Assembly (NCBI GenBank): GCA_000495735.1 | Contig: AYMD01000002.1 | Span: forward strand, 140,467-193,031 | DNA: 52,565 bases | DNA from: an uncultured Acidilobus sp. JCHS | Lineage (GTDB): Archaea; Thermoproteota; Thermoprotei_A; Sulfolobales; Acidilobaceae | Direction of reading: 5' to 3' | The notes under the pieces: generated by a model | The model's database searches: none | Told to the model about the DNA's origin: nothing | Seen by the model: the letters and a program-made list of their open reading frames with translations, nothing else | Made by a program: the position numbers and the translations under genes | Shown here: piece after piece, positions 13,348 through 48,719 of the stretch | How the letters are laid out: every line of letters starts with the position of its first letter | Position numbering within the stretch: position 1 is the stretch's first letter

Positions 13348-13370
13348 TCTGGTTTTGTTTAATATTATTG

Positions 13371-34350: not shown

Positions 34351-34357
34351 GGCCTAT

Positions 34358-34510
34358 AGGGGTTCAGCTCTCATATAGGCTCACGTTGTTTACGGTCATC
34401 GCCTCATCCCTGTTCCCCCGCATCCCGCTCGGGCTTTCATCGGGCTTGGGGGCGTTCAGGGCCACCCCAGGGGCCCCACATCTTGAGTGCTTAGCCACAT
34501 ACCTCCTGAT
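34358..34510 (-). ncRNA. Structured RNA of unknown family, copy A
   Basis: The 210-base space between the oxidoreductase stop and the ROK kinase stop contains, on the minus strand, a TATA box (TTTATAG, 34532-34538) and a region strongly similar to 48533-48685. The two share 30 identical bases (34424-34453), 13 identical bases around CGATGACCGTAAA (34389-34401) and 16 around GAGCTGAACCCCT (34358-34373). The core can fold as nested stems, CCCCC with GGGGG outside and CCCG with CGGG inside. CGATGACC and GCTGAAC resemble C and D boxes. There is no open reading frame. It is not recognisable as SRP RNA, RNase P RNA or a tRNA. Confidence 0.7.
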
Positions 34511-34560
34511 GTATGTTGACTGAACGACGACCTATAAACTTACTATGAAAACCAAAACAG

Positions 34561-35532
34561 CTACGGCCTATAGGCGTCCCTGGCTATCGAGGAGGGCGGC
34601 GACATGGCTATCGCTGCAGCCCCCTCAAGGACCTGGTCATCGCCGAAAGAGCACCTCTCGATCCTCGGTACGCCAAAGACCCCCACGTATCTCTGCAGGT
34701 GCTTAATTACGCCAGGCCTTATCAGGTCCTCGTTGTAGAGGTATATGCTGCCGCCTATGAATATGGCCTCAGGGTCATAGGCCGCTATTAACGTCATTAT
34801 GCCCGCGGCATGGGCCCTGTTAATGTAATCGACCACGTGAGCCGCGAAGGGATCGCCCTCCCTCGCCATGGAGTACAGCAGCTCAGGGCTCAGCTCCCCG
34901 CGGGACGCAAGCTCGTAGGCCCTGGTCTTGGAGCCGCTCCAGAGCTGGGCCAGCCTGGCCGCCACCCTCGGTATGTTCTTGCCGCCCACAAAGGCCTCCC
35001 AGTGGCCTACGCCCCCGCACCCGCACGGCATATCTGACTCAAAGCTTATCACAGCATGGCCCAGCTCGTGAGCGTTGCCCCTCCTCCCCACGAGCAGGTT
35101 CCCGTCAACGACAGCGCCTACCCCGAGGCCCGTGCTCATGGTTATGTAAGCTAGGTCGTTCAGGTCCTTGCCCTTCCCTAGGACCTTCTCTGCCCAGACG
35201 CCCGCCATGGCGTCGTTGGCCAGGTAGACAGGCCTCCTGAACTCCTCACCTAGGGAGTCCCTGATCCTGACGTTACCGTAGCCCAGGTTAGGGGTGTATA
35301 GGATGAGCCCCCTTGAGATGTCCAGGGGACCTATTGAGGCTACGCCGATAGCGTTAAAGTCCTCACCTTGACTGACCTCCTTGATTAGACCTATGATTGC
35401 CATTATCAGGTCGTCGCCTGACGTCCTGGGCGTCTGGACCTTCCTAAGCCTCACCGGCGAGGTGCCTGAGAACAGCGCGGCCCTCAGGTTGGTCGCCCCC
35501 ACGTCAACAGCTACCACGTTCAAGTCCTTCAC
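34561..35532 (-). CDS. ROK-family sugar kinase (glucokinase/hexokinase type)
   Basis: A 323-residue ROK kinase. ATP-binding DVGATNLRAALF (about 10-21), the family segment GIGPLDISRG-like (ASIGPLDISRGLI), NDAMAGVWAEKVLGKG with the catalytic-region Asp, and the zinc motif HELGHAV ... CGCGGVGHWEAFVGG (about 157-187). Crenarchaeal ROK enzymes phosphorylate glucose and other hexoses with ATP and are the entry step to their modified sugar pathways. The GTG start is inside a GGAGGTGAAGG context. Downstream of the stop on the same strand lies structured RNA copy A with its own promoter. Divergently transcribed from the phosphoribosyltransferase gene. Confidence 0.92.
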   Translation of the reverse strand: MKDLNVVAVDVGATNLRAALFSGTSPVRLRKVQTPRTSGDDLIMAIIGLIKEVSQGEDFNAIGVASIGPLDISRGLILYTPNLGYGNVRIRDSLGEEFRRPVYLANDAMAGVWAEKVLGKGKDLNDLAYITMSTGLGVGAVVDGNLLVGRRGNAHELGHAVISFESDMPCGCGGVGHWEAFVGGKNIPRVAARLAQLWSGSKTRAYELASRGELSPELLYSMAREGDPFAAHVVDYINRAHAAGIMTLIAAYDPEAIFIGGSIYLYNEDLIRPGVIKHLQRYVGVFGVPRIERCSFGDDQVLEGAAAIAMSPPSSIARDAYRP

Positions 35533-35617
35533 CTCCTGTACGGTCCTCGCGTTACCTATCAGCGTGAGCCTGCGACACGCTTTTAAGAGTCCTCAGCTGA
35601 GGGCCTTGGGGATATAA

Positions 35618-36313
35618 GTGCCAAGGGTCCCCGTTAAGTTAGTCTCCTGGGATGAAATAGTGGAGTGGAGCCTGGGCCTCGGTAAGGTGATCGAGTCCTC
35701 TGGCTGGACCCCAGACATGGTGGTAGCGGTCGCCAGGGGAGGCTACGTGCCCGCGAGGCTCCTGTGCGACTACCTTGGCATCACGGACCTGGTGAGCCTT
35801 CAGAGCCAGCACTGGGTTGAGGCCGCGAAGGCTGCCCAGAAGGCCATCATAAGGAACGCCTACAGTATCGAGGCCAGGGGACTTAAGGTCCTCGTCGTTG
35901 ACGACATAGTGGACACGGGCGAGACCCTGGCCTTGGCAAGGGACTTCATTAGGGCGGAGTGGAAGCCTGAGGACGTCAGGACTGCCGCACTTCAGTGGAT
36001 AAGCCCCATAGCCAAGTTCAAGCCTGACTACTACTATATTGAGGTTAAGGACTGGACGTGGTTCCAGTACCCGTGGACGAGGCTTGAGGACCTGACCCAG
36101 TTCATAGAGCGGGTATTCAGGGAGGACGAGAGGGCCCGCGGGGGCCTGTCAGAGGAGGACCTGAGGAGGGTCTTCACGGAGTGGTACGGAGTCAGGCCTG
36201 AGGACTTTGGCTCCTACTGGAGGCTAGCCCTTGACAGGCTCACCAGCAGGGGCGTCCTAGAGGCCGTTGAGGGCAGGCTGCGCCTGGCCAGAAGGCCTAA
36301 GGCCCAGGGTTAG
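35618..36313 (+). CDS. Phosphoribosyltransferase with C-terminal helical extension
   Basis: A 231-residue protein. The type I PRTase fold occupies about residues 1-150, with the hood segment VVAVARGGYVPARLL and the PRPP-binding loop VLVVDDIVDTGETL (about 91-104). The C-terminal part (about 160-225) is helical and looks like a winged-helix or dimerisation domain. Crenarchaeal relatives salvage hypoxanthine, guanine or xanthine, or act as PRPP-sensing regulators; the substrate cannot be fixed here. GTG start behind a TATA-like CGCTTTTAAGAG (35578-35589). The stop overlaps the convergent pyruvate kinase stop by 4 bases. Confidence 0.85.
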   Translation: MPRVPVKLVSWDEIVEWSLGLGKVIESSGWTPDMVVAVARGGYVPARLLCDYLGITDLVSLQSQHWVEAAKAAQKAIIRNAYSIEARGLKVLVVDDIVDTGETLALARDFIRAEWKPEDVRTAALQWISPIAKFKPDYYYIEVKDWTWFQYPWTRLEDLTQFIERVFREDERARGGLSEEDLRRVFTEWYGVRPEDFGSYWRLALDRLTSRGVLEAVEGRLRLARRPKAQG

Positions 36314-37692
36314 AGCATCTGTCTAACCTTAACTATAGCTGTGGCCCTGTCAAGGGACCACGAGAGCTCCACCACCAGTGAGCCAGGACCCAGGAGACCC
36401 CTGGCCCTGAGCTCCCTCTCCGTCTCCTCAAGGCCCTTGACCTCGTCAAGCCCGTCCTTCACCGTGACCGTGCTCATGCCCCACAGCACGCTCAGCAGCC
36501 TGGCCAGCCTCCTGTCTGAGACGCCTACGTAAACGGGGGAGGGCGGCCTGAAGGCCGCCAGCAGCCTGGCAGCGTCATAGTCAGCCGCGTAGGCCACTAT
36601 TGAGGCCCCGACGCTCTGGGCGAGCTCCACAACACCCCTTGATATCCTTGCGTCAAGGCCTGCGGTGATGGGCTCCACCCTCCTCGGCCTCACGTTCTTG
36701 TTGGCCTCCTCGACGACCCTGTTGAGCCAGGAGACGACCTCGACTGGGTACTTCCCTATCGAGGTCTCTGACGTCACCAGGAAGCCATCGACGCCTTCCT
36801 CCACCCCAGCGTAGACGTCTGAGATCTCCCCCCTGGTGGGCAGGGGTCTCTCTATCATGCTCATAAATATTTCCGTGGCGAGGATCACGGGCTTCAGCCT
36901 CTTCCTCGAGGCCTCTATGATCCTTCTCTGTATGATTGGTATGTCCTCAAGTGGGAAGTGCATACCTAGGTCGCCCCTTGCCACAACGATGCCGTCAGCT
37001 GACTCTGCTATCTCATCAATGTTGACCACGCCGCTTGGGGTCTCTATCTTGGCCAGGATCTTAGCGTCCTTGGCCCCAGCCTCTCTCAATGCCCTCCTAA
37101 TTACGTCTATGTGCCTGGCGCTCCTGACGAAGCTGACCATGACGTAGTCGAAGTCCTTTGAGGCTATGAACCCTATGTCCTTCAGGTCCTTGTCCGTGAG
37201 CGGGGGCAGGTCGTACTCCTTGCCTGCCACGACGACGCCCTTCCTGGCCTCGAGCCTTGAGCCTGAGACCACCCTCAACGTGGCCTGGTCCCTCTCAACG
37301 TCCTCCGCGGTCAGGACAACCCTGCCGTCGTCCACTAGAACCCTGTCGCCCCTCTCTATGGTGTCAAAGAAGGCCCTGCTGTCAACAGGTACCCCCTCAC
37401 CGCCTGCGTCCTTGTACTTGAACTTCACAACGTCCCCAGGCTTGACGTCAAGCCCATCGAACGAGCCTAGCCTCACCCTTGGGCCCTCCAGGTCAGCTAT
37501 CAAGGCCACGTCAAGGCCTAGCTCCTCTGACGCCTTCCTAACCATGTCGACAAATGAAGACCACTGGGCCTCGTTCCCGTGGCTCATGTTGATCCTGAAA
37601 CCGTTGGCTCCAGCGGCGAGCATCCTTCTGACCACGGCGTAGTCCGACGTCGATGGGCCCATAGTCACCAGCACCTTGGCTAGCCTTATCAA
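36310..37692 (-). CDS. pyk: Pyruvate kinase
   Basis: A 460-residue pyruvate kinase making ATP and pyruvate from phosphoenolpyruvate. Barrel motifs: FRINMSHGNE, IADLEGPRVRLG (the usual DTKGPE is replaced by DLEGPR), VMVSFVRSARHI, ILAKIETPSGVVNIDEI (catalytic Lys), DGIVVARGDLGMHFPLE and VILATEIFMSM. The latter two carry small deviations from textbook forms (ATQMLESM). The B domain is about 70-155 and the C domain about 340-460. It provides pyruvate for the ferredoxin oxidoreductase. It starts at ATG 37692, monocistronic, with T/A-rich sequence upstream (ATAAAATAACG near 37725). Confidence 0.96.
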   Translation of the reverse strand: MIRLAKVLVTMGPSTSDYAVVRRMLAAGANGFRINMSHGNEAQWSSFVDMVRKASEELGLDVALIADLEGPRVRLGSFDGLDVKPGDVVKFKYKDAGGEGVPVDSRAFFDTIERGDRVLVDDGRVVLTAEDVERDQATLRVVSGSRLEARKGVVVAGKEYDLPPLTDKDLKDIGFIASKDFDYVMVSFVRSARHIDVIRRALREAGAKDAKILAKIETPSGVVNIDEIAESADGIVVARGDLGMHFPLEDIPIIQRRIIEASRKRLKPVILATEIFMSMIERPLPTRGEISDVYAGVEEGVDGFLVTSETSIGKYPVEVVSWLNRVVEEANKNVRPRRVEPITAGLDARISRGVVELAQSVGASIVAYAADYDAARLLAAFRPPSPVYVGVSDRRLARLLSVLWGMSTVTVKDGLDEVKGLEETERELRARGLLGPGSLVVELSWSLDRATAIVKVRQML

Positions 37693-37735
37693 GGCTGATC
37701 CCTGAGAACCCTGTGAGAGCGAGAATAAAATAACG

Positions 37736-38299
37736 CTAGGCCCTGATTATGCCTGCCTCACGAAGCCTCCTCATGATTATCTGGGCTTCGTCGAACTCCT
37801 CGACAGCTTTCTCTATCTCTTCATAGCTTACCTTCAGCCTGCCCCTCTTCACCAGGTCAGCCACCCTCTTGAGGCCCTCCAAGTCCTCCTCCCTGCCCGC
37901 CCTCCCCTTGAGGGCCAGGTACTCTTCAGGCTTTATGACCTTGACCTTGACCCCCTCTACGTCAACCCTCTTGGCCTCGTGGATGAACCTCTCCGGCACG
38001 TAGAAGTCGTAGAGGTTATCGTAAAACTCCACGGGCACCTCCTCAGCCTCGACCACCATGGTGATCCTCGGCGTCCCCAACCAAGTCTGGCCGAGGTCCC
38101 AGTGGTTAAGGTCGGCCGCCCTCCCATAGGCCTCCTCGGCCTCCACTACGCTGGGGGACTCTGCAAACAGGTCTATGTCGTCACCCATGTCGTCAAGTTC
38201 CGCGGCTATGCTTATCACGGAGCCCCCGATGATCGTGAACCTGAAGCCGTTGTCGAGGAGCGCCCTCAGCGCGGCTGCGAACGCCCTCCTGCTGACCAT
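37736..38299 (-). CDS. Nucleotidyltransferase-fold protein
   Basis: A 187-residue protein. The N-terminal nucleotidyltransferase motif is FTIIGGSVISIAAELDDMGDDIDLF: the GG(S) pair followed by D-x-D (DDIDLF) as metal ligands. A third Asp/Glu is likely in VPVEFYDN. The middle region (VIKPEEYLALKGRAGREEDLEGLKRVADLV) is typical of the archaeal/bacterial MNT/AbiEii-like and DUF-type nucleotidyltransferases, which use this Lys/Arg stretch for NTP binding. The function could be tRNA or protein nucleotidylation. No toxin-antitoxin partner (HEPN) adjoins it. It lies upstream of pyk on the same strand. Confidence 0.75.
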   Translation of the reverse strand: MVSRRAFAAALRALLDNGFRFTIIGGSVISIAAELDDMGDDIDLFAESPSVVEAEEAYGRAADLNHWDLGQTWLGTPRITMVVEAEEVPVEFYDNLYDFYVPERFIHEAKRVDVEGVKVKVIKPEEYLALKGRAGREEDLEGLKRVADLVKRGRLKVSYEEIEKAVEEFDEAQIIMRRLREAGIIRA

Positions 38300-38343
38300 G
38301 GCGCTGGCCTCCTACATTGCTGAGCGGTGGGCTACTAAAAATA

Positions 38344-39420
38344 TCACCTGGTGACCTTGGACTCAAGGACCTTAACGAGCTGGACGACGTCGGGCCTCTC
38401 GAAGAGCTTCCTGGGCCCCTCAAGGAGCCTTACAAGCGACTCGGCCGTGGCCTCCTTGAGGTCAGCCGGGTGAAGCCTCCCTTCAACGTACGCCCTCTCC
38501 AGCTCCTCGTAGGAGTAGAAGTCCACGGGCCCCCCGTACTTCTGAGGCCTATCAATGTGAAGCGTGAAGCCTGGCTTCGCGAACAGCAGGTACTTGTTAA
38601 TTTCCATCACTGGGTTGAACTCGACTTGCCTCGGAGGGCAGTAGGCGGCCCTGACCTTCGCCCTTATCTCCTCAGGCGCGTCGTTAACGAATATCGCGTC
38701 TGAGGCCTTGGACTTGGACATCTTGAAGGCAGCGACCTCCTCATCCTTCTCGGCCCCCTCCATCCTCTTCCCCCCGCTGAGCCCTGTGAGGATGGGCGTG
38801 TGAAGCGCTATGACCTTCTTGCGGCCCATGCGCTCCGCCACCTCCCTCTGGAGTACGTGGGCCTTCCTCTGGTCAAGCCCCCCTAGGGCTAGGTCGAGGT
38901 CCAGGTAAATTATGTCAGAGACCTGCATAGCGGGGTAAATGAGCTTTGACGTGTCGAGCTCGGCCTCATCAACGCTCCTCCCCATTATGGTGAGGGCCCT
39001 CCTCATCCTCGCCAGGCTTGTCATCTTCATTACCTTGATTACCAGGGCCCAGTAGTCCTTATCAGATGCCAGCCTCTCAGCGTCAACGAACTCTACGCGG
39101 TCAACGTCGACGCCGACGGACCTCATGACCTCCCTCATCAGCCACGCGGCCTTCCTTATGAGGTCTATGTCGCCCCCTAGCTTGTCGTTAATCATGGCGT
39201 GCCATGTGGCCTCAAGGACCACGAAGTGCACCCCTGCATCCACGAGATCCCTGACCTTGTTCATCCATATCAGGTGCCCTATGTGGACCAGGCCGCTCGG
39301 CTCGTACCCTATGTACCCCCTCAGCCTCTGGCCTGACCCCAGCTTCTCCTTCAGCTCGGCCTCCGTTAGCACCTCAACGAGGTTCCTCGTGATCAGCGAG
39401 AGCTTGTCCTCCGCGGTCAA
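38344..39420 (-). CDS. tyrS: Tyrosyl-tRNA synthetase
   Basis: A 358-residue class I aminoacyl-tRNA synthetase of the archaeal TyrRS type. The HIGH signature lies in YEPSGLVHIGHLIWMNK (about 39-55) and KMSKS is exact (about 232). Tyrosine-binding and dimer-interface patches such as YPAMQVSDIIYLDLDLALGG and DQRKAHVLQREVAERMGR are as in Aeropyrum/Methanocaldococcus TyrRS. Archaeal TyrRS lacks the bacterial S4 domain and this one ends after a short anticodon-binding region, as expected. The last residues overlap no neighbour. It is a single gene; a minus-strand TATA-like ATTTAAGAC lies near 39450. Confidence 0.96.
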   Translation of the reverse strand: MTAEDKLSLITRNLVEVLTEAELKEKLGSGQRLRGYIGYEPSGLVHIGHLIWMNKVRDLVDAGVHFVVLEATWHAMINDKLGGDIDLIRKAAWLMREVMRSVGVDVDRVEFVDAERLASDKDYWALVIKVMKMTSLARMRRALTIMGRSVDEAELDTSKLIYPAMQVSDIIYLDLDLALGGLDQRKAHVLQREVAERMGRKKVIALHTPILTGLSGGKRMEGAEKDEEVAAFKMSKSKASDAIFVNDAPEEIRAKVRAAYCPPRQVEFNPVMEINKYLLFAKPGFTLHIDRPQKYGGPVDFYSYEELERAYVEGRLHPADLKEATAESLVRLLEGPRKLFERPDVVQLVKVLESKVTR

Positions 39421-39471
39421 GCCGCATCTGAGGACATAACTGGGTAACCGTCTTAAATAACTATCTAAAGG

Positions 39472-40749
39472 TTATCCCTCGAACCCTGGTATCCTCGCCC
39501 TCTCAAACTTCAAGTCCGAGCCCAGGGGCTTAGTAGCGTCTATCCCGACCTTGCTAGTCATGCCGTCCTCTACCGAGCTGGGGTCAAGCGTCGACCCCCT
39601 CGCCCTGTACACCACCACCAGCCCCCTGTCGGCCTGGAACCTCGTGGCTATGGCCCACTCGACCTGGCCAAGGTCATCAACGTCTATGTCGTCATCTACT
39701 ATGACAACATGTTTGAGGCTGGGGTGGGCGCCGAAGGCGGCCATTATGGCGTTCTTCGGGTCCCCGTCATGGCTCTTCCTTATCGATATCACTGCGTGAA
39801 GCCAGTGGCCGCTGGCCTGCGTTAGCCTCACCGCAATAACCTCAGGCACGGCCCTCGAGACGGCGTCCCATATGGCGGCCTCCCGGGGGAACCCCATCAG
39901 CATCCCGTGCTCGTAGCCTCCTGGAAGGATCACGTGAGCCGGCTCCTCGACATTTATCAGCACCCTCCTCACGGCCAGGACCGGCTGCTTCCTCACCCTG
40001 TCGTAGCCGCCCATGGCCTCAACGAAGGGTCCCTCGTCAACGAGCTCACCTGTCAGGTGGCCCTCGATCACGGCCGCGACCCCTACAGGGACTGGGTTGC
40101 CGTGGACAGGGCTCCTGAAGACCTCTAGGCCCCCGAGGAGGGCCGAGGCGGCCTCCAGCTCAAATACGCCCAGAGGGGGCGAGGAGGCGGCCGCCAGCAT
40201 AACGGCCGGGTGGACGCCGATCACTACGGTAACTGGGAGGTCCTCCCCCCTTGACCTGGCCTGCTGGTAGAGGTACCAGAGGTGCCTCGGCACGAGCCTC
40301 ACAGCGCCCCTCCTCTCATCAAGGACCATGACCCTGTGAACGCTTGCGTTGCATATCCCCATGTAGCAGGCCACGAAGACCCCGCTCGTGAGGTAGTAGC
40401 CCCCGTCACGCTCGTAGAACCTTATGGCAGGCAGCGACAGGAGCCCCCTGCTGGCCTCCCTGAGGGGGGGAGGAGAGGCCTCAACAAGCCGCTGAGGTGA
40501 CGAAAGCGCTGACAACAGCTTCCTGTAAGCTTCCTTCAGGTCGCTCGCTTCCAGCGCCTTCATGACCTTGGGCCTCGTGTCGGTTACGTTGCCCACGGCC
40601 TGGAGCTCTGAGCCCCTCACTGAGAACCTGAGGGCCCTAGGCCCTTCCTGGGACCTCTTCAGCGCGGCGGCCGGCTCAAAGTCAGGGGAGAGCAGGCCAA
40701 CGTCTTCATAGCCTATCCTCTCCACGAACGACGCCAGCGAGGCCTTCAT
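39472..40749 (-). CDS. UbiD-family decarboxylase
   Basis: A 425-residue UbiD-type decarboxylase using prenylated FMN. Conserved parts include YYLTSGVFVACYMGICNASVHRVMV read in short pieces, and the PGGYEHGMLMGFPREA segment (about 270-285) with the active-site Glu pair and Arg. IVDDDIDVDDLGQVEWA is the C-terminal family hallmark. ATG 40749 is chosen because GGAGGG precedes it at good spacing and the TATA-like minus-strand TTAAATAAT (40784-40792) fits; a TTG at 40764 is the alternative. In Aeropyrum-type archaea a UbiD protein is the anhydromevalonate phosphate decarboxylase of the modified mevalonate pathway. That role is a good candidate here but not proven; no UbiX gene is in the window. Confidence 0.88.
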   Translation of the reverse strand: MKASLASFVERIGYEDVGLLSPDFEPAAALKRSQEGPRALRFSVRGSELQAVGNVTDTRPKVMKALEASDLKEAYRKLLSALSSPQRLVEASPPPLREASRGLLSLPAIRFYERDGGYYLTSGVFVACYMGICNASVHRVMVLDERRGAVRLVPRHLWYLYQQARSRGEDLPVTVVIGVHPAVMLAAASSPPLGVFELEAASALLGGLEVFRSPVHGNPVPVGVAAVIEGHLTGELVDEGPFVEAMGGYDRVRKQPVLAVRRVLINVEEPAHVILPGGYEHGMLMGFPREAAIWDAVSRAVPEVIAVRLTQASGHWLHAVISIRKSHDGDPKNAIMAAFGAHPSLKHVVIVDDDIDVDDLGQVEWAIATRFQADRGLVVVYRARGSTLDPSSVEDGMTSKVGIDATKPLGSDLKFERARIPGFEG

Positions 40750-40787
40750 CGAATCGCCCTCCAACTTATGGGGCTAGCGCTCATTAT

Positions 40788-41405
40788 TTAATGATTGACC
40801 ACCTGTAGGAGCGCTAGGCGAACCGCCGCCCTCGCGTTCCTGTCCCTGAGCCTGAGGGGCAGTAGGTCAGCCGCGGAGTTCGTGGTGCCCATCTCGTCGG
40901 CTACCGTGAAACTCAGGCTCCTCTCGAGCAGCCTTGACGCCACCTCCTCCCACCCACTCCCTGACCCCAGGACGAGGCTGAACCTGGCGGCAGGCGCTGC
41001 CCTCACGAGCCTCTCTGCCCGCTCGGCTACCTCGTCACATGTGACAGAGCGCGCCTCTATGATCAAGCCGTCGGCCACGGCTGCAAGCCCGCAGAGCCTC
41101 TGGCCAGGGTCCACGCCGATTCTGAGCGTGGAAAAGCCATCCTTTGGGTACGCGAGGGCCAGGAGGAGCGCCCTCAGGGGGTCCTCATCGCTTACGGCCG
41201 GCCCCTTAGCCTGCACAACGCTGAAGACCTTTGACTCAGGCGACTCAGGCAGCGGCATAACTGCTACGTCCCACTGCGACGCTGGGTCAAAGGTAACGTA
41301 TACGCCCTGCGGCCTGAGGAGCCACAGCCTTGATTTGAGCTCCCTTATGGCCTCCGGGTCACCCCTGAGCCAGAGTATCCTCTTAGCGACCCAGCCAGCA
41401 CCCAC
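40788..41405 (-). CDS. Predicted RNase H-fold (RuvC/YqgF-like) protein
   Basis: A 205-residue protein. The C-terminal part (about 93-200) starts with LRIGVDPGQRLCGLAAVADG, the first strand and Asp of a RuvC/YqgF-type RNase H fold, followed by further strands and helices (RFSLVLGSGSGWEEVASRLLE, then SFTVADEMGTTNSAADLLP with a candidate second acidic residue). The N-terminal 90 residues form a separate alpha/beta region with no recognised motif. It may be an archaeal DNA or RNA nuclease or an inactive homologue. I base this on the strand-one signature only. tRNA-Pro lies immediately upstream on the same strand. Confidence 0.5.
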   Translation of the reverse strand: MGAGWVAKRILWLRGDPEAIRELKSRLWLLRPQGVYVTFDPASQWDVAVMPLPESPESKVFSVVQAKGPAVSDEDPLRALLLALAYPKDGFSTLRIGVDPGQRLCGLAAVADGLIIEARSVTCDEVAERAERLVRAAPAARFSLVLGSGSGWEEVASRLLERSLSFTVADEMGTTNSAADLLPLRLRDRNARAAVRLALLQVVNH

Positions 41406-41470
41406 AGCATATCATTACAGCGGGGATATAAGTTGTTCCCAGGGTCACTTCCAGGGCCACGAGAACTAAG

Positions 41471-41547
41471 TGGTGGGGCCGCCGGGATTTGAACCCGGGA
41501 CCACGAGGGCCCAAGCCTCGCATCCTACCAAGCTGGACTACGGCCCC
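41471..41547 (-). tRNA. tRNA-Pro(TGG)
   Basis: Read on the minus strand: acceptor stem GGGGCCG/CGGCCCC with discriminator A and encoded CCA (41471-41473). The D arm, anticodon stem CGAGG/CCTCG with loop CTTGGGC (anticodon TGG, normal U33) and T arm CCGGG/CCCGG with TTCAAAT are present. There is no intron. A TATA-like GCAAAATAG lies about 25 bases upstream on the minus strand. Confidence 0.95.
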
Positions 41548-41710
41548 CCAAGCCCCTCTCGGGCGAGGGCTGGCTATTTTGCGTATCGCGCCTAAGGTCA
41601 ATGGGTAATACGTCTGTGGGGAAGGGATCCTTGAAGGATTGTCGTAAGACGGCGATGTCTTTTTAAGCTTTGGCCGACCACAACTACCCGAGCACAGCGG
41701 GTGAGTGAGT

Positions 41711-41956
41711 ATGGCCCAGAACCTAGAGTTGGTGAAGGAGTGGGTCATCACCAGGAAGCCGGCTAGGGTTGAGGTAGGCCTCTTCGAGCTCCCTGACGGC
41801 AAGAGGAGGGTAATGAGCCTGAAGAAGGGCCAGGAAGCCGGCTACAAGCTAATCAAGTCATGGACGCTCGCTCCAAAGCATGTCAAGGCTCTGAAGGCCC
41901 AGCTCTTCAGGGACAAGAGCACCGGCAAGTACGTCAGGAAGATAGTCCCGGCTTAG
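41711..41956 (+). CDS. Cren7-like chromatin protein
   Basis: An 81-residue basic protein. The C-terminal half (about 40-81), with SWTLAPKHVKALKAQLF, then RDKSTGKYVRKIVP, resembles the Cren7 SH3-like chromatin protein of crenarchaea (compare the VWxLAPK ... GLFKxPETGKYFR pattern). It carries a longer N-terminal part than Cren7 (about 60 residues). Such proteins bind and bend double-stranded DNA in the minor groove. ATG 41711 is preferred over GTG 41705; GGTGAGTGAG just upstream can act as a ribosome binding site. A strong TATA box (CTTTTTAAGC, 41658-41667) and a T-rich terminator after the gene suggest high, independent expression. Assignment is by pattern. Confidence 0.55.
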   Translation: MAQNLELVKEWVITRKPARVEVGLFELPDGKRRVMSLKKGQEAGYKLIKSWTLAPKHVKALKAQLFRDKSTGKYVRKIVPA

Positions 41957-42003
41957 CGAATTAAATCAAAATAAAAATATTTTTATTTTATTATTTTTAT
42001 TAA
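41957..42003 (+). terminator. T-rich terminator after the Cren7-like gene
   Basis: Almost pure A/T with several runs of five T, giving U-rich transcript ends. It contrasts sharply with the GC-rich surroundings. Confidence 0.6.
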
Positions 42004-42058
42004 GCTTATGTGACCCTACTATGCCTACTGACTAAGACCTGGACTTACGTCCTAGTGA

Positions 42059-42144
42059 CGCCGGGGGTGGGATTCGAACCCACGCGCCCCTTTAAGAGCA
42101 ACGGGTCTCGAGCCCGTCGCCTTGGACCGCTCGGCCACCCCGGC
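42059..42144 (-). tRNA. tRNA-Ser(CGA)
   Basis: An 86-nt minus-strand tRNA with a long variable arm. Acceptor stem GCCGGGG/CCCCGGC, discriminator G, anticodon stem ACGGG/CCCGT with loop CTCGAGA (anticodon CGA, U33 normal), extra arm around GCTCTTAAAGGGGCG and T arm GTGGG/CCCAC. The discriminator G and extra arm are serine identity features. CCA is not encoded. The 210 bases between this gene and dnaG hold only the dnaG promoter (AGCTTAAAGG near 42331-42340); I see no other gene there. Confidence 0.95.
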
Positions 42145-42353
42145 GCCGTTGTTTATGTTCTCTCAGCCCCTTTTTACCTTGCTTGCAGAATTAGCCCTAC
42201 TAGGATCGTGCTCAGGCCCTGCTGATTACATAGAGCTATATCATTATTTAGGAGAAGGCTTTCCTGAACTAACCTTATTATCCTTAACTCCCTCCAAGCG
42301 ATTTGGCTGATGGAACCCAGCGTCACATGACGTAGCTTAAAGGGTGAGAAGAC

Positions 42354-43703
42354 TTGAAGTACCTGATAAAGGCCTCATTTGAGGTCGACGGAAGGGTTGA
42401 AAAGCACGACATAATAGGCGCTGTGTTCGGGCAGACGGAGGGCCTCCTGGGCTCAGAGTTCAACCTGGAGGAGCTACAGAACAAGGACAAGATAGGGAGG
42501 GTCCACCTAGACCTGAAGTACCAGGGAACTAAGACCGTTGGCGTGATCCAGATCCCGAGTAACCTGGACCGCGTGGAGACAGTTATCCTGGCCGCGATGC
42601 TTGAGACGGTTGACCGCGTGGGGCCCTACTCGGCCAGGGTCACGGTGGAGTCCATTGAGGACCTCAGGGCCGAGAAGCTGAAGTGGATAGTTCAGAGGGC
42701 GCGCGAGCTGCTCCAGCAGGTCAAGGAGCAGGAGCCTGACATCAAGGAGATCATAAGGCAGGTCTCCCAGAAGGCTGAGGCCCCGCCCAAGGTAATAGAG
42801 TACGGCGAGGACAAGCTGCCGGCGGGGCCTGACGTTGAGAGGTCCGACACGCTGATAGTTGTTGAGGGAAGGGCTGACGTGATCAACCTGCTCAGGTACG
42901 GCTACACGAACGTGATAGCCCTGGGCGGGGCCAAGGAGAAGGCGCCTAGGACGATCCTCGAGCTGGCCAAGAACAAGAAGGTCATACTCTTCGTTGACGG
43001 TGACAGGGGAGGGGAGCTCATACTTAAGAACATGCTTAACCAGATGCATGTTGACTATGTGGCCAGGGCCCCCAAGGGGATGGAGGTTGAACAGCTCACA
43101 GGGAAGGAGATAGCGAGGGCCCTGGCCCAGATGGTCCCAGCAGAGGAGGTGGCCAAACAGCTGCTCAAGGAGGTGGTTCAGCAACCCCAGGCGCCTGCGC
43201 CCTCCGCTCCCCAGGCGCCTCAGCCCGCTCAACCCGAGGTTGCCCCTCAGCCCACTGAAGTCCAGCCCGCGCCGCCCGTAGCTGAACAGGCCCAGCGGGC
43301 TGAGCAGCAGGCTGTTGCGCCTGCTCAGCAGGCCCCAGCGGCCGAGGTTCAGCAGCCCCAGGCGCCCCTCCAGCAGGCTGAGCAGCAGGCCGTGACCACT
43401 ATGGCGGTGCCAAGGAAGGTCATAGACGGCATAAAGGACCTCAAGGGGACCCTCGAGGCCGTGGCCTACGACAGGTCCTGGAACGAGGTGGAGAGGGTGA
43501 AGGTGAAGGACCTCTTCAGCTGGATGCAGCAGGTGGAGCCAGGCAAGGTCTATGCTGTCGTTTTTGACGGCATAGTGACCCAGAGGCTCCTTGACGTTGC
43601 GTCGGAGAAGGGCATAGCCCTGCTCATCGGGGCCCGCATAGGCAGCAAGGTCACGTCTAAGAAGGGAGACGTAATATTTATGACGTTCAGTGACCTTACT
43701 TAA
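42354..43703 (+). CDS. dnaG: Archaeal DnaG-type primase/exosome protein
   Basis: A 449-residue archaeal DnaG. The TOPRIM domain (about 165-250) has the glutamate in LIVVEGRADVINLLRYG and the DGD motif in VILFVDGDRGGELI. The N-terminal domain (KYLIKASFEVDGRVEKHDIIGAVFGQTEGLLG, read in pieces) is the conserved archaeal part. A 90-residue linker (about 275-365) is extremely rich in Gln, Pro, Ala and Val, followed by a C-terminal basic domain. In archaea DnaG is chiefly a poly(A)-binding subunit of the RNA exosome, with weak primase activity. TTG start after AGACT. It overlaps the convergent polB stop by 4 bases. Confidence 0.95.
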   Translation: MKYLIKASFEVDGRVEKHDIIGAVFGQTEGLLGSEFNLEELQNKDKIGRVHLDLKYQGTKTVGVIQIPSNLDRVETVILAAMLETVDRVGPYSARVTVESIEDLRAEKLKWIVQRARELLQQVKEQEPDIKEIIRQVSQKAEAPPKVIEYGEDKLPAGPDVERSDTLIVVEGRADVINLLRYGYTNVIALGGAKEKAPRTILELAKNKKVILFVDGDRGGELILKNMLNQMHVDYVARAPKGMEVEQLTGKEIARALAQMVPAEEVAKQLLKEVVQQPQAPAPSAPQAPQPAQPEVAPQPTEVQPAPPVAEQAQRAEQQAVAPAQQAPAAEVQQPQAPLQQAEQQAVTTMAVPRKVIDGIKDLKGTLEAVAYDRSWNEVERVKVKDLFSWMQQVEPGKVYAVVFDGIVTQRLLDVASEKGIALLIGARIGSKVTSKKGDVIFMTFSDLT

Positions 43704-46105
43704 CCTCCTTTTTTGCCCAGGTAGTCGAACAGGGAGGCCTGCCTGGCCCCCGACTTGAGCTCCCTCTCGCTGACGCCGAAGAGCTCCAGGATCCTCAGGG
43801 CCGCCGGCACCACCTGCTTATCTATGTAGTAGTTATAGTCTATCTCCGTGGGCTTCACTATGAAGTAGGGCCTGGCCCTCCTTGAGACAGGCCCTTCGCC
43901 CTTAACTATCACGTAACCTATCTTGGACCCGACGTCTACCTTAAAGCCGAGCTTCTCCATCATCCTGGCAGCATATACGTGAGGCGCCTCGGCCTCGTAC
44001 TCGTCGAGGCCCTTGGTCAGCGTCTTCCATATGACCAGCTTCTCTACGTTTGCCTTCCCTGACCTCAGGTCATTTATGACGGCCTTAACGTACTCAATAG
44101 CCTTTCTGACGTCGCCTGTCCTCAGCACTATCTCGGCCACATTGGCCTGAGTCTCCTTAGCCAGCTCGCTCCAGTCCCCCCTCACTGCCTCAAAGCCCAC
44201 TATGTCAATCTTACCGTCAGCGGTGAGGCCGGCGTACCTCTTCTTGGCCTCGGTGAAGAATACCCTGCTGTAGACCTTGTCCACCTTTATGTCGAACTCA
44301 AGGCCCTTTGTTATCTCCTCTATGAGCCTTGAGACCTTCTCGGGCTCGTTGGCCACGAACAGGCTGTCTGTGTCACCGTAGTACACCTGTAGGCCTAGCG
44401 ACCTGGCTATGGAGACGGCCTTAGTTATGAGCTCCCTTCCCCAGGCGGTAACGGACTCCGCGCACCCCTTGCAGTACCACCTAGCCGCGGCCCAGCCCAT
44501 GTAGCCGTAGCTCGCGTTGGCCAGGACCTTTATCGCCCTCTGCCTCTCGTTCAGGAGCCTGTACTGGGGCGAGCCCCCGGGGTACTTCTTCATGGCGGCC
44601 TTGACCTCGGCCCTCCACTTGAGGAACCTCTCAAGGACCCTCCTGAAGAAGGCTGGCCTGTCAGCGCAGAACCTGTGGCCCACCCCTGGGGCCTGGTTCT
44701 CCCTTTCACATCGCTCGCCCTCCTTAAGCAACGTGTCAGGCCCCACGTTGTACTTGACCATTATGCTCGGGTACATGCTGGCGAAGTCGAGGACGGCGAC
44801 GTCCTTATGGACGCCAGGCTTGGGTTCAAGTACTATAGCCCCCGTATAGGTCTCGAAGGCCCTCGCCTCCTCCTCCTTCCTGTTGGGCACCAGCTCGCCC
44901 AGCTTCCTGGCCTCCCTCATGAACCTCATCTCTAGCCTGAAGGCGACGCTCGCGGCGGCAACCTGGTCAAGGGGGAGGCCGCTTATCTGGCTGAGCTGGG
45001 CCCCGAAGGGCAGGAACTGGTAGGCCAGCCCGAGGGTCGAGGTCACGTCATCCACGTTATAGGCCAGCAGGAGCCCGCGCCTCTCCGGGCTGTCCCAGTA
45101 CTCCGCTATCTTCCACCACTCTATGTTGACCCTCTTGTCCTTCGGCATGACCCCGAGGTAGTCAGCCACCTCGTCAAGTGACTTAACCTTGACCTCCTCT
45201 ATCTCCTCGGCGAAGTTGTAGAGGTCAACGTTGAGCCTGCCCTGAACTGATATGTGGCCAAAGACGCTGGGGCTGGGCTCTGCTCCCCTCTTCCTGCCCA
45301 CCTCGAGCTTCAGGCCGTTTACCTTGGCCCTCTCAAGCAGGTAAGGCCAGTCGAAGGAGTTCTGGTTATACCCAACTATTATGTCGGGGTCCTTCCTCCT
45401 GACGAGCTCCACGAACTCCCTAAGCACATCCTTATCGTCGTGGCCTTTAGCCTGGAGCTGCACTTTCTCGCCGTCATTAAAGGCCATCCCTATCACTACA
45501 ACCGGGTCCCTAGACGGGTTGGGCGAGCCCTGAGGGTTGTAGGCCTCTATGTCAAAGGCCATTATCCTGAGGCCCTCGAGGGGGTCCACGTCAGCCAACG
45601 AGGGCTCCTCGGCCAGGTCTGAGCTCAGCTTGTAAACGGCGTCGACCACGAAGTCGTTCCTCTGGACCCTCTCCCCGCTGGCCCTGTACCACCTCATAGG
45701 GTACAGGTTCTTGTCTATGAGGTACCTTATGGAGAACCTTACGTCGGCCTCCAGCACCTCCTTGACGCCGGGGAGCTTTGCCACCTCCTCCCTGTAGTCC
45801 CTCACGGTCTCAGGGATGACGGTCTGTACCCTCAGGGCCTTGACAGGCCGCCCGAAGTACCTGGCCTCCACAAGGTCTACGCCAGTTATGGGGCTCCTCG
45901 GCTTGGAGAGCCTCCTGACCGCGGCGCTGACAGCGCTTGGGTCCTGCCCCTCCTCGAGCAGTGCGTAGAAGTAGGGTCTGAAGCTGTCGTCAAGCAGCAC
46001 TATCCTCCTGCCCTTGTCGTCCCTGGCCCATATCTCGATGACCGGGCGGCCCGCCTCAACCTCGTAACTCACGTCAAGGATCTGGAACGTCAGGTCCTCT
46101 GGCAA
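43700..46105 (-). CDS. polB: Family B DNA polymerase
   Basis: An 801-residue PolB. The 3'-5' exonuclease motifs are Exo I MAFDIEAYN (about 182-190), Exo II VGYNQNSFDWPYLL and Exo III YNVDDVTSTLG. The polymerase palm has motif A LDFASMYPSIMVKYN, motif B KVLANASYGYMG and motif C YYGDTDSLFV, followed by KKRYAGL. The N-terminal region (PVIEIWARDDKGRR, then DDSFRPYFYALLEE) resembles the uracil-sensing N-domain of the KOD/PolB3-like enzymes, which suggests the main replicative type. Both catalytic sites are intact. The C-terminus ends with SLFDY, a plausible PCNA-binding (PIP-like) peptide. Monocistronic, convergent with dnaG. Confidence 0.97.
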   Translation of the reverse strand: MPEDLTFQILDVSYEVEAGRPVIEIWARDDKGRRIVLLDDSFRPYFYALLEEGQDPSAVSAAVRRLSKPRSPITGVDLVEARYFGRPVKALRVQTVIPETVRDYREEVAKLPGVKEVLEADVRFSIRYLIDKNLYPMRWYRASGERVQRNDFVVDAVYKLSSDLAEEPSLADVDPLEGLRIMAFDIEAYNPQGSPNPSRDPVVVIGMAFNDGEKVQLQAKGHDDKDVLREFVELVRRKDPDIIVGYNQNSFDWPYLLERAKVNGLKLEVGRKRGAEPSPSVFGHISVQGRLNVDLYNFAEEIEEVKVKSLDEVADYLGVMPKDKRVNIEWWKIAEYWDSPERRGLLLAYNVDDVTSTLGLAYQFLPFGAQLSQISGLPLDQVAAASVAFRLEMRFMREARKLGELVPNRKEEEARAFETYTGAIVLEPKPGVHKDVAVLDFASMYPSIMVKYNVGPDTLLKEGERCERENQAPGVGHRFCADRPAFFRRVLERFLKWRAEVKAAMKKYPGGSPQYRLLNERQRAIKVLANASYGYMGWAAARWYCKGCAESVTAWGRELITKAVSIARSLGLQVYYGDTDSLFVANEPEKVSRLIEEITKGLEFDIKVDKVYSRVFFTEAKKRYAGLTADGKIDIVGFEAVRGDWSELAKETQANVAEIVLRTGDVRKAIEYVKAVINDLRSGKANVEKLVIWKTLTKGLDEYEAEAPHVYAARMMEKLGFKVDVGSKIGYVIVKGEGPVSRRARPYFIVKPTEIDYNYYIDKQVVPAALRILELFGVSERELKSGARQASLFDYLGKKGG

Positions 46106-46158
46106 GCGGCCCCCAGAGTTCCATAGCCTTGGGAGGCCTTAAGCAGTAGCGCCTATCC

Positions 46159-47355
46159 TTAAGGGATCAGGGCCATAAGGCCGCTGGCCACCACGAGCGC
46201 CGAGAGGGCCCAGTAGGCCGCCGCCCTGGCCCCCTTCAGCCTCTCCTCGCCCATCACGTCGCTCCTTGATGCTACCCTGCCCAAGAGGTACAGCAGGGGC
46301 GCCAGGACTATAGTGAAGGAGACCATCAGGTCAAGCATGAGCTCCACGAGGTTCCTTGATATCAGCACGACTAAGAGGGCCGGCAGGGACTCAAGGACAT
46401 ATATGAGCCTGAACGTCGTCGAGCCCCTCCTGACGCCGAGCGACTCCATAAAGCCCCAGGCCGAGGCCAGGGAGATCACTATCAGGGCCAGGAATCCTGA
46501 GAACGCGAAGCCCAGCCCCATTATGTACCTGGCCGCCTGTCCGAAGGGCCGCAGTGCGGCCACCATGATGGAGGGGTCCAGGTAGCCCCTCACGTCACCT
46601 ATGGCCACGCCGTCTATGACCGTGATGGCCATGAGGACCTCCGAGACCAGGGCCCCCACGAGGGTCTCGGCCCTCTCAGGCCTTAGGTCCTTCCTGGAGA
46701 GGCCCTTCCTGGCGTCTGCGCCTGAGTGAAAGAAGAGCATCCAGGGCATTATGACGGACCCCACGCTGGCCGCCAGCATGTAGTCGAATTCCCTGTCCTG
46801 AAGGGGCATGCCCGCGACCATAGAGTCCATAACGGCCGCAGGGTCAAGCCTCATCATGGCAACCGAGGCCACTATTGTGGCCACCAGTAAGAAGCTGAAA
46901 GGGAGCAGGAAGGCCTCCACGTGCCTGTAGCGGCCGGTCCAGGCCACAACTATGTGTAAGACGAACACGAGCAGAAGCATGGGCAGTACCGGCAGGCCCA
47001 GGAGGCCCAGCCCCAGGGCTATGCCAGCGTACTCGGCGACGTACTCAAGTACGTCAAGCAGGGCCATCGGGATCGCCGCGGCCATCGCCACCCTCCTGCC
47101 GTAGAGCCTCCTTACGGCAGTCCCGAGGCCCGTGCCGCTCACGGTGCCCAGGGTCCCGGCCACGTCCTGTATTACGAAGAGGGGCACCGCCAGGAGGAGC
47201 ATGACCAGGACCATCCTGTAGCCCCAGCTGGCCCCGACCTGGAGGCCTGTGACTATGGAGGCTACGTCTACGTCTGCTATCATCACCAGCCACGCGGGGC
47301 CGAAGGTCCTCATGTAATCCTTTATCTTGGCGTAATCCAAGGCGCTCACTTCCAT
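46159..47355 (-). CDS. Divergent Nramp-family transporter
   Basis: About 398 residues with about eleven transmembrane helices in the LeuT-fold Nramp pattern (FGPAWLVMIADVDVASIVTG in helix 1, ASVGSVIMPWMLFFHSG in helix 6). The helix 1 metal motif DPGN is replaced by DVDVAS, and the helix 6 MPH is MPW, so only the Asp and Met positions seem kept. Nramp proteins co-transport Mn2+, Fe2+ or other divalent ions with protons. Replacement of the Asn and His points to altered ion preference, as in Nramp-related magnesium or aluminium transporters. The frame opens at 47367, but the TATA-like GCTTAAAAATC at 47369-47379 favours ATG 47355. Confidence 0.8.
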   Translation of the reverse strand: MEVSALDYAKIKDYMRTFGPAWLVMIADVDVASIVTGLQVGASWGYRMVLVMLLLAVPLFVIQDVAGTLGTVSGTGLGTAVRRLYGRRVAMAAAIPMALLDVLEYVAEYAGIALGLGLLGLPVLPMLLLVFVLHIVVAWTGRYRHVEAFLLPFSFLLVATIVASVAMMRLDPAAVMDSMVAGMPLQDREFDYMLAASVGSVIMPWMLFFHSGADARKGLSRKDLRPERAETLVGALVSEVLMAITVIDGVAIGDVRGYLDPSIMVAALRPFGQAARYIMGLGFAFSGFLALIVISLASAWGFMESLGVRRGSTTFRLIYVLESLPALLVVLISRNLVELMLDLMVSFTIVLAPLLYLLGRVASRSDVMGEERLKGARAAAYWALSALVVASGLMALIP

Positions 47356-47471
47356 GTTGGCCTCCAAGATTTTTAAGCTTGCCTAAACTTTGATATTATT
47401 CAGAAAAATAACGCTTATCCGATACAGGGTCACCAGCCAATAAAAGGGGCTCAAGATAGTTTTACCTCGGC

Positions 47472-48140
47472 TTGGCCGGCGCGCTGATAGCTGTTGAGGG
47501 GATAGACGGCAGCGGGCTCAGCACGCACTCAAAGCTCCTCGTCAAGTCCCTTGAGTCCCTCGGCCTCAGGTCCGTCTACACTAAGGAGCCCACGGAGGGC
47601 CCCGTGGGGAAGCTCATAAGGTCTCTCCTATCGACCAAGGGGCCTGACCCCTACCTGATGGCCCTCCTGTTCGCGGCCGACAGGGCATGGCACCTCAGGG
47701 GCGACGAAAGCCTTCCTGGCGGGAGAGGGGTCCTCGGCGCGCTTGAGCTGAACTACGTAGTGGTCACAGACAGGTACAAGTACAGCTCTATAGCGTACCA
47801 GGGCAGCGCAGGGGCCCCTAAGGAGTGGCTGTGGTCGCTCAACTCCTTCGCCAGGGAGGCCGACGTCATAGTCTACATAGACGTGCCCGTCAGGCTTGCT
47901 CTGAGCAGGATAGCCGCGAGGAGGGCCGTTGAGGCATACGAGGATGAGGCCTTTCTAATGAAGGTCAAGGAGTCCTTCAGCGAGGTCCTTGAGAGGGCCT
48001 CGGAGGCCGGCGTTAAGGTCATCAGGGTCCCTGGGTCCGTGGGCGAGGAGCCAAGGCCAGTTGAGGACGTCTCCAAAGATGTACTCACCGGGGTTTTAGG
48101 GTGGCTTCAGGAGACCCGGCGACTTAACTTTAAAAGCTAG
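47472..48140 (+). CDS. tmk: Thymidylate kinase
   Basis: A 222-residue dTMP kinase making dTDP. The P-loop is VEGIDGSGLSTHSKLL (Gly-Leu-Ser-Thr replaces the usual GKST lysine region, a change known in some archaeal members). Conserved TKEPTEGPVGKLIRSLL, the DRYKYSSIAYQG substrate-binding motif and the DVPVRLALSRIAAR lid region are all present. A missing Walker A lysine is notable and shifts phosphate binding to other basic residues. TTG start with AATAAAAG TATA-like sequence upstream (47439-47446). Followed 30 bases later by a small membrane protein on the same strand. Confidence 0.9.
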   Translation: MAGALIAVEGIDGSGLSTHSKLLVKSLESLGLRSVYTKEPTEGPVGKLIRSLLSTKGPDPYLMALLFAADRAWHLRGDESLPGGRGVLGALELNYVVVTDRYKYSSIAYQGSAGAPKEWLWSLNSFAREADVIVYIDVPVRLALSRIAARRAVEAYEDEAFLMKVKESFSEVLERASEAGVKVIRVPGSVGEEPRPVEDVSKDVLTGVLGWLQETRRLNFKS

Positions 48141-48169
48141 GCATTTAGCGTCACAAGGGGGTCTAGGGT

Positions 48170-48472
48170 ATGCCGAGCAGTAAGGCCACAGGCGCCCTCC
48201 TGCTCATAGTGTCAATAGTGATAATAGTAGCTTATAACGTGGCCCTCTGGCTGCCTCCTCTCTCGTCAGAGGCCTCGATCTTCCTGCTAAAGCTCACTGA
48301 CTCAATAATAGTCATAGCGGTGCTGGCCATATTGGCCTGGATAGGCTACACGCTCATAACGACGCCTCCGCCCAAGCCCATCGAGGAGATAGAGAAAGAG
48401 CTTGAGAAGGAGCTCAAGAGCATAACCCAGAAGCCTCAGCAGGAGACGGGCCAGGCAACCTCAGGCTCCTAG
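48170..48472 (+). CDS. Small membrane protein with charged C-terminal tail
   Basis: A 100-residue protein with two transmembrane helices (about 8-28 and 40-62). The tail is proline-rich (TPPPKP) and then strongly charged and helical (EEIEKELEKELKSI), ending Gln/Gly/Ser-rich. It resembles small archaeal membrane anchors but has no recognised family. ATG 48170 with a GGTCTAGGGT leader. Its stop is followed by the promoter of structured RNA copy B. It may be co-transcribed with tmk. Confidence 0.6.
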   Translation: MPSSKATGALLLIVSIVIIVAYNVALWLPPLSSEASIFLLKLTDSIIVIAVLAILAWIGYTLITTPPPKPIEEIEKELEKELKSITQKPQQETGQATSGS

Positions 48473-48501
48473 CCTTCCGTAGCTGTTTCGATTTTCATAA
48501 T

Positions 48502-48511
48502 AAGCTTATAG
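48502..48511 (+). promoter_or_regulatory. TATA box of structured RNA copy B
   Basis: TAAGCTTATA lies about 25 bases before the proposed RNA 5' end. The box and about 20 surrounding bases are conserved in copy A (TTATAGGTCGTC is identical), which supports a functional promoter. Confidence 0.6.
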
Positions 48512-48532
48512 GTCGTCATTGTAACCAACGTC

Positions 48533-48685
48533 TACACGAGGTATATGATAGAGCAGTCAAGACGTGGAGCCCCTGAGATGGCCCTGAAAAGCCCCCAAGC
48601 CCGATGAAAGCCCGAGCGGGGCGGGGAATAGTGCTGAGACGATGACCGTAAAACAGCATGAACCTGAGAGCTGAACCCCTGGTTT
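48533..48685 (+). ncRNA. Structured RNA of unknown family, copy B
   Basis: Homologous to 34358-34510 on the opposite strand. The identical 30-base core is at 48591-48620, followed by CGATGACCGTAAA (48640-48652) and the end block ending in GAGCTGAACCCCT (to 48680), then a T5 run as terminator. Bases between blocks vary while the pairings CCCC/GGGG and CCCG/CGGG are kept. There is no ORF. The C/D-like boxes suggest L7Ae binding, but the RNA is about three times longer than a normal C/D sRNA. Confidence 0.7.
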
Positions 48686-48719
48686 TTAACCGTCCAGCTC
48701 TGCTGCTTCCCAGAGAGCC

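What the first reader, a model, noticed from the sequence alone, without database searches (positions are those of the whole stretch)
34358..48685. Two homologous structured RNA genes of unknown family, 14 kb apart on opposite strands
34358-34510 (minus) and 48533-48685 (plus) share a TATA region (TTATAGGTCGTC), a 30-base identical core, a 13-base block (CGATGACCGTAAA) and a 16-base end block, with diverged linkers between. Neither holds an ORF. The nested stems CCCCC/GGGGG (four pairs in copy B) and CCCG/CGGG are kept although the spacer between them differs (ATGC versus GC). CGATGACC and GCTGAAC look like C and D boxes, so L7Ae binding is plausible, but the RNA is too long for an ordinary C/D sRNA. 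I cannot match it to SRP, RNase P or tRNA. Multiple promoter-bearing copies suggest a small regulatory or guide RNA family.
Basis: seen in the sequence. Interest (0 to 1): 0.8.

Follow-up and report, generated by a model that had tools for sequence, protein, structure and literature searches.

The report
Mini-transposons carrying a TnpB guide-RNA scaffold
The two matching "RNA genes" are two of about ten copies of a 208-base mobile DNA remnant that keeps only the ends of a TnpB transposon, including the stretch that would encode the guide RNA of its Cas12-like nuclease, so they belong to a known kind of mobile element rather than a new RNA family.

Summary
The pair is real but is not a stand-alone two-gene RNA family. 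Both are internal-deletion derivatives (PATE/MITE type) of a TnpB-only IS200/IS605-like insertion sequence: about 45 nt of transposon left end (GCCY...CTGTTTC...TTTATA) fused at one shared junction to the last ~150 nt of tnpB plus the right end (GAGAGCTGAACCCC|). In full-length relatives this 3' segment sits where the TnpB guide RNA (omegaRNA) lies. The own genome holds 10 hits (8 ends-only copies, 2 at a frameshifted tnpB next to an assembly gap). The family is patchy in the order (46 of 197 genomes), reaching 84 copies in one MAG that also encodes uninterrupted TnpB. No own copy was found at an orthologous site in three congeners, so they moved recently. The "C and D boxes" are tnpB codons and stop; copy A still reads 47 codons of tnpB. 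No Rfam match. Likely working: mobilised in trans; if transcribed from the TATA element now abutting it, the product would be an omegaRNA whose guide is the flanking host DNA. Here the cognate TnpB is broken, so the copies are probably inert. No transcript was tested. Kind known; family apparently undescribed.

The parts
34359..34567 (-). Copy A: whole mini-element, left end GCC at 34567 to right end ...GAACCCC at 34359 (209 bp)
   Evidence: sharp conservation boundaries on both sides (56 left ends; right ends of all copies); the flanking genes are adjacent without it in G001
34533..34538 (-). TATA-like box TTTATA, part of the transposon left end (candidate promoter)
   Evidence: same block in the left end of full-length tnpB elements; promoter activity is inferred, not tested
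34497..34516 (-). 5' hairpin ACATAC-ATCAGGAG-GTATGT near the start site expected from the TATA box
   Evidence: read from sequence; equivalent short hairpins in other copies seen by eye, not counted statistically
34364..34507 (-). In-frame remnant of the tnpB C-terminus (47 codons and stop)
   Evidence: same peptide end in full-length TnpB of G052 and G002
34359..34491 (-). Conserved omegaRNA-like scaffold (133 nt) with stem CCCCC 34452-34448 / GGGGG 34419-34415 and inner stem CCCG 34444-34441 / CGGG 34427-34424
   Evidence: covariance model hit 159.6 bits (the copy is in the training set); covariation
34341..34358 (-). Predicted guide: host DNA just past the right end (TATAGGCCCTAGTCCAGG)
   Evidence: by analogy with known TnpB omegaRNAs (PMC10640517); its first 12 nt match the uninterrupted orthologous gene end of G001 at 10/12; no other perfect match in own genome
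48472..48679 (+). Copy B: whole mini-element (208 bp)
48505..48511 (+). TATA-like box CTTATAG in the left end of copy B
48529..48547 (+). 5' hairpin CGTCTAC-ACGAG-GTATATG (one mismatch)
   Evidence: read from sequence
48552..48679 (+). Scaffold of copy B; tnpB frame broken by indels
   Evidence: 102.7 bits with model R1; frames
48680..48697 (+). Predicted guide of copy B (TGGTTTTTAACCGTCCAG)
   Evidence: only its own site in the genome within 3 mismatches

Best explanation
The two loci are copies of a non-autonomous mobile element (PATE/MITE type) derived from a TnpB-only IS200/IS605-like insertion sequence by one internal deletion that fused the left end to the last part of tnpB and the right end. 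SHOWN: shared ends with full-length tnpB elements, one common fusion junction in the copies of the two congeneric species, sharp ends, many dispersed copies, uninterrupted orthologous sites, covarying stems in the 3' scaffold. INFERRED: the element is moved in trans by an unidentified transposase; the TATA box of the left end can transcribe the scaffold plus the adjacent host DNA; that RNA is a TnpB omegaRNA whose guide (the 3' flank) matches the pre-insertion site, so where an active TnpB is present it would cut the empty site and help the mini-element persist. In this genome the only tnpB of this lineage that carries the scaffold is frameshifted, so the copies are most likely inert or dying. 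Confidence 0.9 is for the identity; the RNA-guided step in trans is far less sure (about 0.25, see the section on the most novel reading).
For: 10 hits in the own genome. TnpB zinc-ribbon (PF07282) hits lie directly upstream of the same RNA segment in G052, G047, G039, G008, G002 and own C2:116-118 kb. In G052 an uninterrupted 428-aa TnpB ORF ends inside GAGAGCTGAACCCC, with RuvC D-E-D motif and two CxxC pairs. The left end of the solos matches the left end of the full-length copies. TnpB identity: NF040570 E 3.4e-28 (99 bits, just under its 100-bit cut-off), TIGR01766 and PF07282 over cut-off; solved Cas12f/TnpB chains match by sequence. Sharp left boundary at GCC in 56 left ends (information rises from below 0.3 to above 1 bit). 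Orthologous flanks in G001/G002/G003 lack the insert, e.g. about 12 nt in G001 where copy A's locus has about 238 nt. Patchy distribution, 46/197 genomes of the order. Genome G204 (MAG GXS.bins.2, JAUQPH01): 84 copies and three near-full-length TnpB ORFs without stops. Stem covariation including C-G to G-C swaps. Solos of the two congeners show no third-codon-position bias and fewer changes at paired columns.
Against: No Y1 transposase (PF01797) in the own genome, G002, G062, G066 or G204, and the Y1 loci tested elsewhere do not carry these ends, so the mobiliser is unknown; IS607 serine recombinases are present but their ends were not matched. No transcript, TnpB binding or cleavage was tested. 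The paired-column result counts related sequences and is not an independent test; in the larger solo set the number of pairs with double changes does not exceed shuffles. Copy A is flanked by an imperfect 12-bp direct repeat (TATAGGCCGTAG / TATAGGCCCTAG), not expected for IS200/IS605 and not seen at other copies.
Confidence: 0.9

Rival explanations
1. Domesticated trans-acting guide RNAs: the solos are kept by selection as separate omegaRNA genes that programme a TnpB (or TnpB-like repressor) with distinct guides.
For: TATA-like element directly upstream; scaffold stems covary among solos; in G204, G207 and G066 many solos coexist with TnpB ORFs without stops; some solos also keep a hairpin from the 5' end of tnpB.
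Against: No own copy was found at an orthologous site in three congeners, so no guide is conserved; guides of copies A and B have no other perfect site in the genome; own and G002 cognate TnpBs are frameshifted or lack a zinc-ribbon half.
Confidence: 0.12
2. Pure transposon debris: no RNA function at all; similarity reflects recent common origin from tnpB, and the stems are carried over from the parent omegaRNA. This is compatible with the identity given in the best explanation and differs only in denying any RNA step.
For: Own TnpB is frameshifted, copy B has indels in the frame and shortens the outer stem; single-sequence folding energy is ordinary.
Against: Fewer changes at paired columns in the own/G002 solos; copy numbers of 36-84 in some genomes show that the mini-elements themselves propagate.
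Confidence: 0.4
3. Independent archaeal C/D-box or other L7Ae-binding sRNA family.
For: Short motifs resembling C and D boxes in the two copies.
Against: Motifs are tnpB codons and stop; not invariant; no Rfam match up to E = 5; homologues lie at the 3' end of tnpB.
Confidence: 0.01

Closest known systems
PATEs, palindrome-associated transposable elements (Haloquadratum walsbyi, PMC3119063; Halanaerobium, PMC7290912)
   Same: Ends-only derivatives of IS605-type/IS1341-type (TnpB) transposons formed by core deletion, sometimes keeping part of the tnpB C-terminal coding region, dispersed, without transposase
   Different: Here the parent is a TnpB-only element of Sulfolobales/Desulfurococcales-type archaea; near-terminal palindromes were not demonstrated; the deletion brings the left-end TATA box to the guide-RNA scaffold
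omegaRNA of TnpB (ISDra2, PMC8612924; S. islandicus SisTnpB1, PMC10640517)
   Same: Structured RNA encoded by the tnpB 3' end plus right end; conserved scaffold followed by non-conserved guide
   Different: No biochemistry here; candidate TAM is GC-rich (GCCY) instead of TTTAA/TTTAT; most copies have lost tnpB
RAGATH-18 RNA of IS607 TnpB (PMC11061315)
   Same: Precedent of an orphan structured RNA motif that turned out to be a TnpB guide RNA
   Different: Different sequence and transposon family; this one has no Rfam match

Membership tests
Non-autonomous IS200/IS605-type derivative (PATE) | Both ends shared with a full-length element of the same group | tested here: met
   Left end and right end found around full-length tnpB in G002, G052 and own 116-118 kb
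Non-autonomous IS200/IS605-type derivative (PATE) | Core deletion removing the protein genes | tested here: met
   Common junction of left end to tnpB 3' part in own/G002 solos
Non-autonomous IS200/IS605-type derivative (PATE) | Mobility: uninterrupted orthologous sites | tested here: met
   (flanks without insert in G001, G002, G003)
Non-autonomous IS200/IS605-type derivative (PATE) | No terminal inverted repeats and no target duplication | tested here: inconclusive
   Termini GCCY... and ...ACCCC are not inverted repeats; copy A alone has an imperfect 12-bp direct repeat
Non-autonomous IS200/IS605-type derivative (PATE) | Near-terminal palindromes | not tested
   Only weak candidates seen by eye in the left end
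IS200/IS605 family in the strict sense | Mobilised by a Y1 (HuH) TnpA | tested here: inconclusive
   No PF01797 in own genome, G002, G204, G062 or G066; Y1 loci tested in other genomes do not have these ends
TnpB omegaRNA | Encoded at the 3' end of tnpB overlapping the right end | tested here: met
TnpB omegaRNA | Conserved structured scaffold with sharp 3' end followed by variable guide | tested here: met
TnpB omegaRNA | Binds TnpB and guides cleavage next to a TAM | not testable with these tools
   Candidate TAM GCCY from left-flank logo only
Archaeal C/D box sRNA | Conserved C/D boxes with closing stem (kink-turn) and guides | tested here: not met
   'Boxes' vary and are tnpB codons/stop; no Rfam match
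Any described Rfam family | Match to a covariance model | tested here: not met

The most novel reading that the evidence does not exclude
A family of TATA-preceded, tnpB-less omegaRNA genes that spreads as mini-transposons through thermophilic archaea (up to 84 per genome) and programmes one TnpB in trans with dozens of different guides, so that non-autonomous elements borrow an RNA-guided nuclease for their own retention.
Probability: 0.25. Interest if true: 0.65.

Novelty: new member of a known kind. Interest (0 to 1): 0.36.

Why it matters
It removes a false 'new RNA family' and shows how an orphan structured RNA can be traced to a TnpB transposon. It also offers a natural test of whether mini-transposons that keep only the guide-RNA part benefit from TnpB supplied in trans, with one genome holding 84 copies alongside TnpB ORFs without stops, and raises the open question of how TnpB-only elements move when no Y1 transposase with matching ends is found.

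Tried and rejected
Rfam at gathering score over the window and with E up to 5 over copy A: no match apart from three tRNAs elsewhere in the window. Single-sequence folding: not informative. Short ORF hypothesis: SD-like AGGAGG seen at the 5' end, but the frame is the tnpB frame and is broken in copy B. Phage and viral collections: no match. Extra 5' hairpins in solos of other genera first looked like a new module; blast showed that they come from the 5' end of tnpB. Alternative pairings (GGGG with terminal CCCC; GTGGGG with CCCCC) are compatible with the data but not better supported. Orthologous copies between own genome and G002: none found. Attempt to lay the whole genome in the Python box: not available.

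Full report
Check of the observation. The two segments are homologous and on opposite strands as described. A search of the window's own genome (G000, 1.48 Mb) with copy A finds 10 places at E <= 5e-25, copy B among them. All-copy alignment shows homology starting at GCC (34567 and 48472 in the window) and ending at ...GAGAGCTGAACCCC (34359 and 48679), after which the sequences are unrelated. So the unit is about 208 bp, not a 150-nt RNA gene pair.

Relatives. In 60 relatives the segment is patchy: 8 genomes have it, often in about ten copies, while two of three congeners have none. A covariance model (R1) finds it in 46 of 197 genomes of the order, with 84 copies in one 1.6-Mb MAG (GXS.bins.2) and 36 in another. 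Viral and phage collections gave nothing.

What it is. TnpB zinc-ribbon hits (PF07282) lie immediately upstream of the segment in several genomes (read together). In G052 an ORF of 428 residues without a stop ends '...GFTGDRDVVACINLFHRYSRCGGLRVPLNAPKPDENPSGMQGNKDEAMKPTNINLYKS*', its TGA lying inside GAGAGCTGAACCCC. It has the RuvC D-E-D motif and two CxxC pairs, matches the RNA-guided TnpB models and solved Cas12f/TnpB chains by sequence. Copy A reads the same peptide end in frame. The left block of the solos (GCCYNNCGTAGCTGTTTCAACTTTCATATAGGTTTATA) is the left end of full-length tnpB copies. The solos of the own genome and G002 share one fusion point between the left end and the tnpB codons for DVIATINIYRR, so they descend from one deletion derivative. 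Solos of other genera have other deletions, some keeping a hairpin from the tnpB 5' end.

Mobility. Flanking DNA of the own copies was located in G001, G002 and G003. The copies are absent there; at copy A, G001 has about 12 nt between the matched flanks where the own genome has about 238. None of the own copies was found at the same site in G002, although G002 has at least 17 copies. The right flank of copy A (predicted guide, TATAGGCCCTAG) matches 10 of 12 bases of the uninterrupted gene end in G001 right after GCC, as expected if guide = pre-insertion site and GCC(Y) is the target-adjacent motif. The left-end logo of 56 copies has a sharp start at GCCY. This is one locus and a logo, not a functional test.

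RNA-level evidence. Minimum free energies are ordinary. Comparative evidence is positive: structure with 15 pairs, 93.4% of cells paired, 29 double-changed cells against 9.8 in shuffles, score 0.249 against 0.173, and slid versions far lower. In the own and G002 solos changes are not concentrated at third codon positions (4.3, 8.0, 4.6%) and are rarer at paired columns (2.6 against 7.5%); shared ancestry makes this suggestive only.

Is it active here? The only own tnpB of this lineage with the scaffold (C2:116-118 kb) is frameshifted and sits at an N gap with duplicated flanks, probably an assembly artefact. G002's copy lacks half of the zinc ribbon. G204, G207 and G066 do encode TnpBs of this lineage without stops. 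No Y1 transposase was found in the own genome, G002, G062, G066 or G204. IS607 serine recombinases do exist, one of them in the window at 13368-14015. Which enzyme moves these elements is unresolved; a similar puzzle was noted for Haloquadratum (PMC3119063).

Comparison with the known. Ends-only derivatives of IS605/IS1341-type elements are known as PATEs, including ones that keep the tnpB 3' end (PMC3119063, PMC7290912). TnpB omegaRNAs encoded at the tnpB 3' end with the guide in the flank are known, including in Sulfolobus islandicus (PMC8612924, PMC10640517), and TnpB processes its own mRNA into omegaRNA (PMC10278001, abstract). RAGATH-18 is the precedent of an orphan RNA motif becoming a TnpB guide RNA (PMC11061315). 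No paper on this family was found in the held library (the library lacks most subscription papers). From my own knowledge, unverified here: stand-alone omegaRNAs have been noted for IscB. The case is therefore a new member of a known kind, with an interesting but untested possibility of trans-guiding.

Noticed in passing
window 13368-15312 (+): A complete IS607-type element: serine recombinase (NF033518, 227 bits) followed by its own tnpB; the genome has five such recombinases, each near a tnpB.
   Followed up: partly
window 34341-34581: Copy A is flanked by an imperfect 12-bp direct repeat (TATAGGCCGTAG left, TATAGGCCCTAG right) that keeps the end of the upstream sugar-kinase-like gene intact; unexpected for IS200/IS605 and not seen at the other copies.
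   Followed up: partly
L178, L261-L290 (G204, MAG GXS.bins.2, JAUQPH01): 84 copies of the element in a 1.6-Mb genome that also encodes three near-full-length TnpB ORFs without stops; no Y1 transposase detected.
   Followed up: partly
L120 (G000:C2:112400-122400): N gap flanked by duplicated tnpB 3' halves, probably an assembly artefact at the repeat.
   Followed up: no
L107 (G002), minus strand 2357-1011: tnpB whose zinc ribbon lost one CxxC pair and whose frame reads through the right end into the flanking DNA.
   Followed up: no
L263-L289, L311-L319, L050, L058: Solos of other genera keep hairpins from the 5' end of tnpB (GAGAGCC...GGCTCTCCCC) next to the scaffold, suggesting that the 5' end of the tnpB message may also be part of the functional RNA.
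   Followed up: partly
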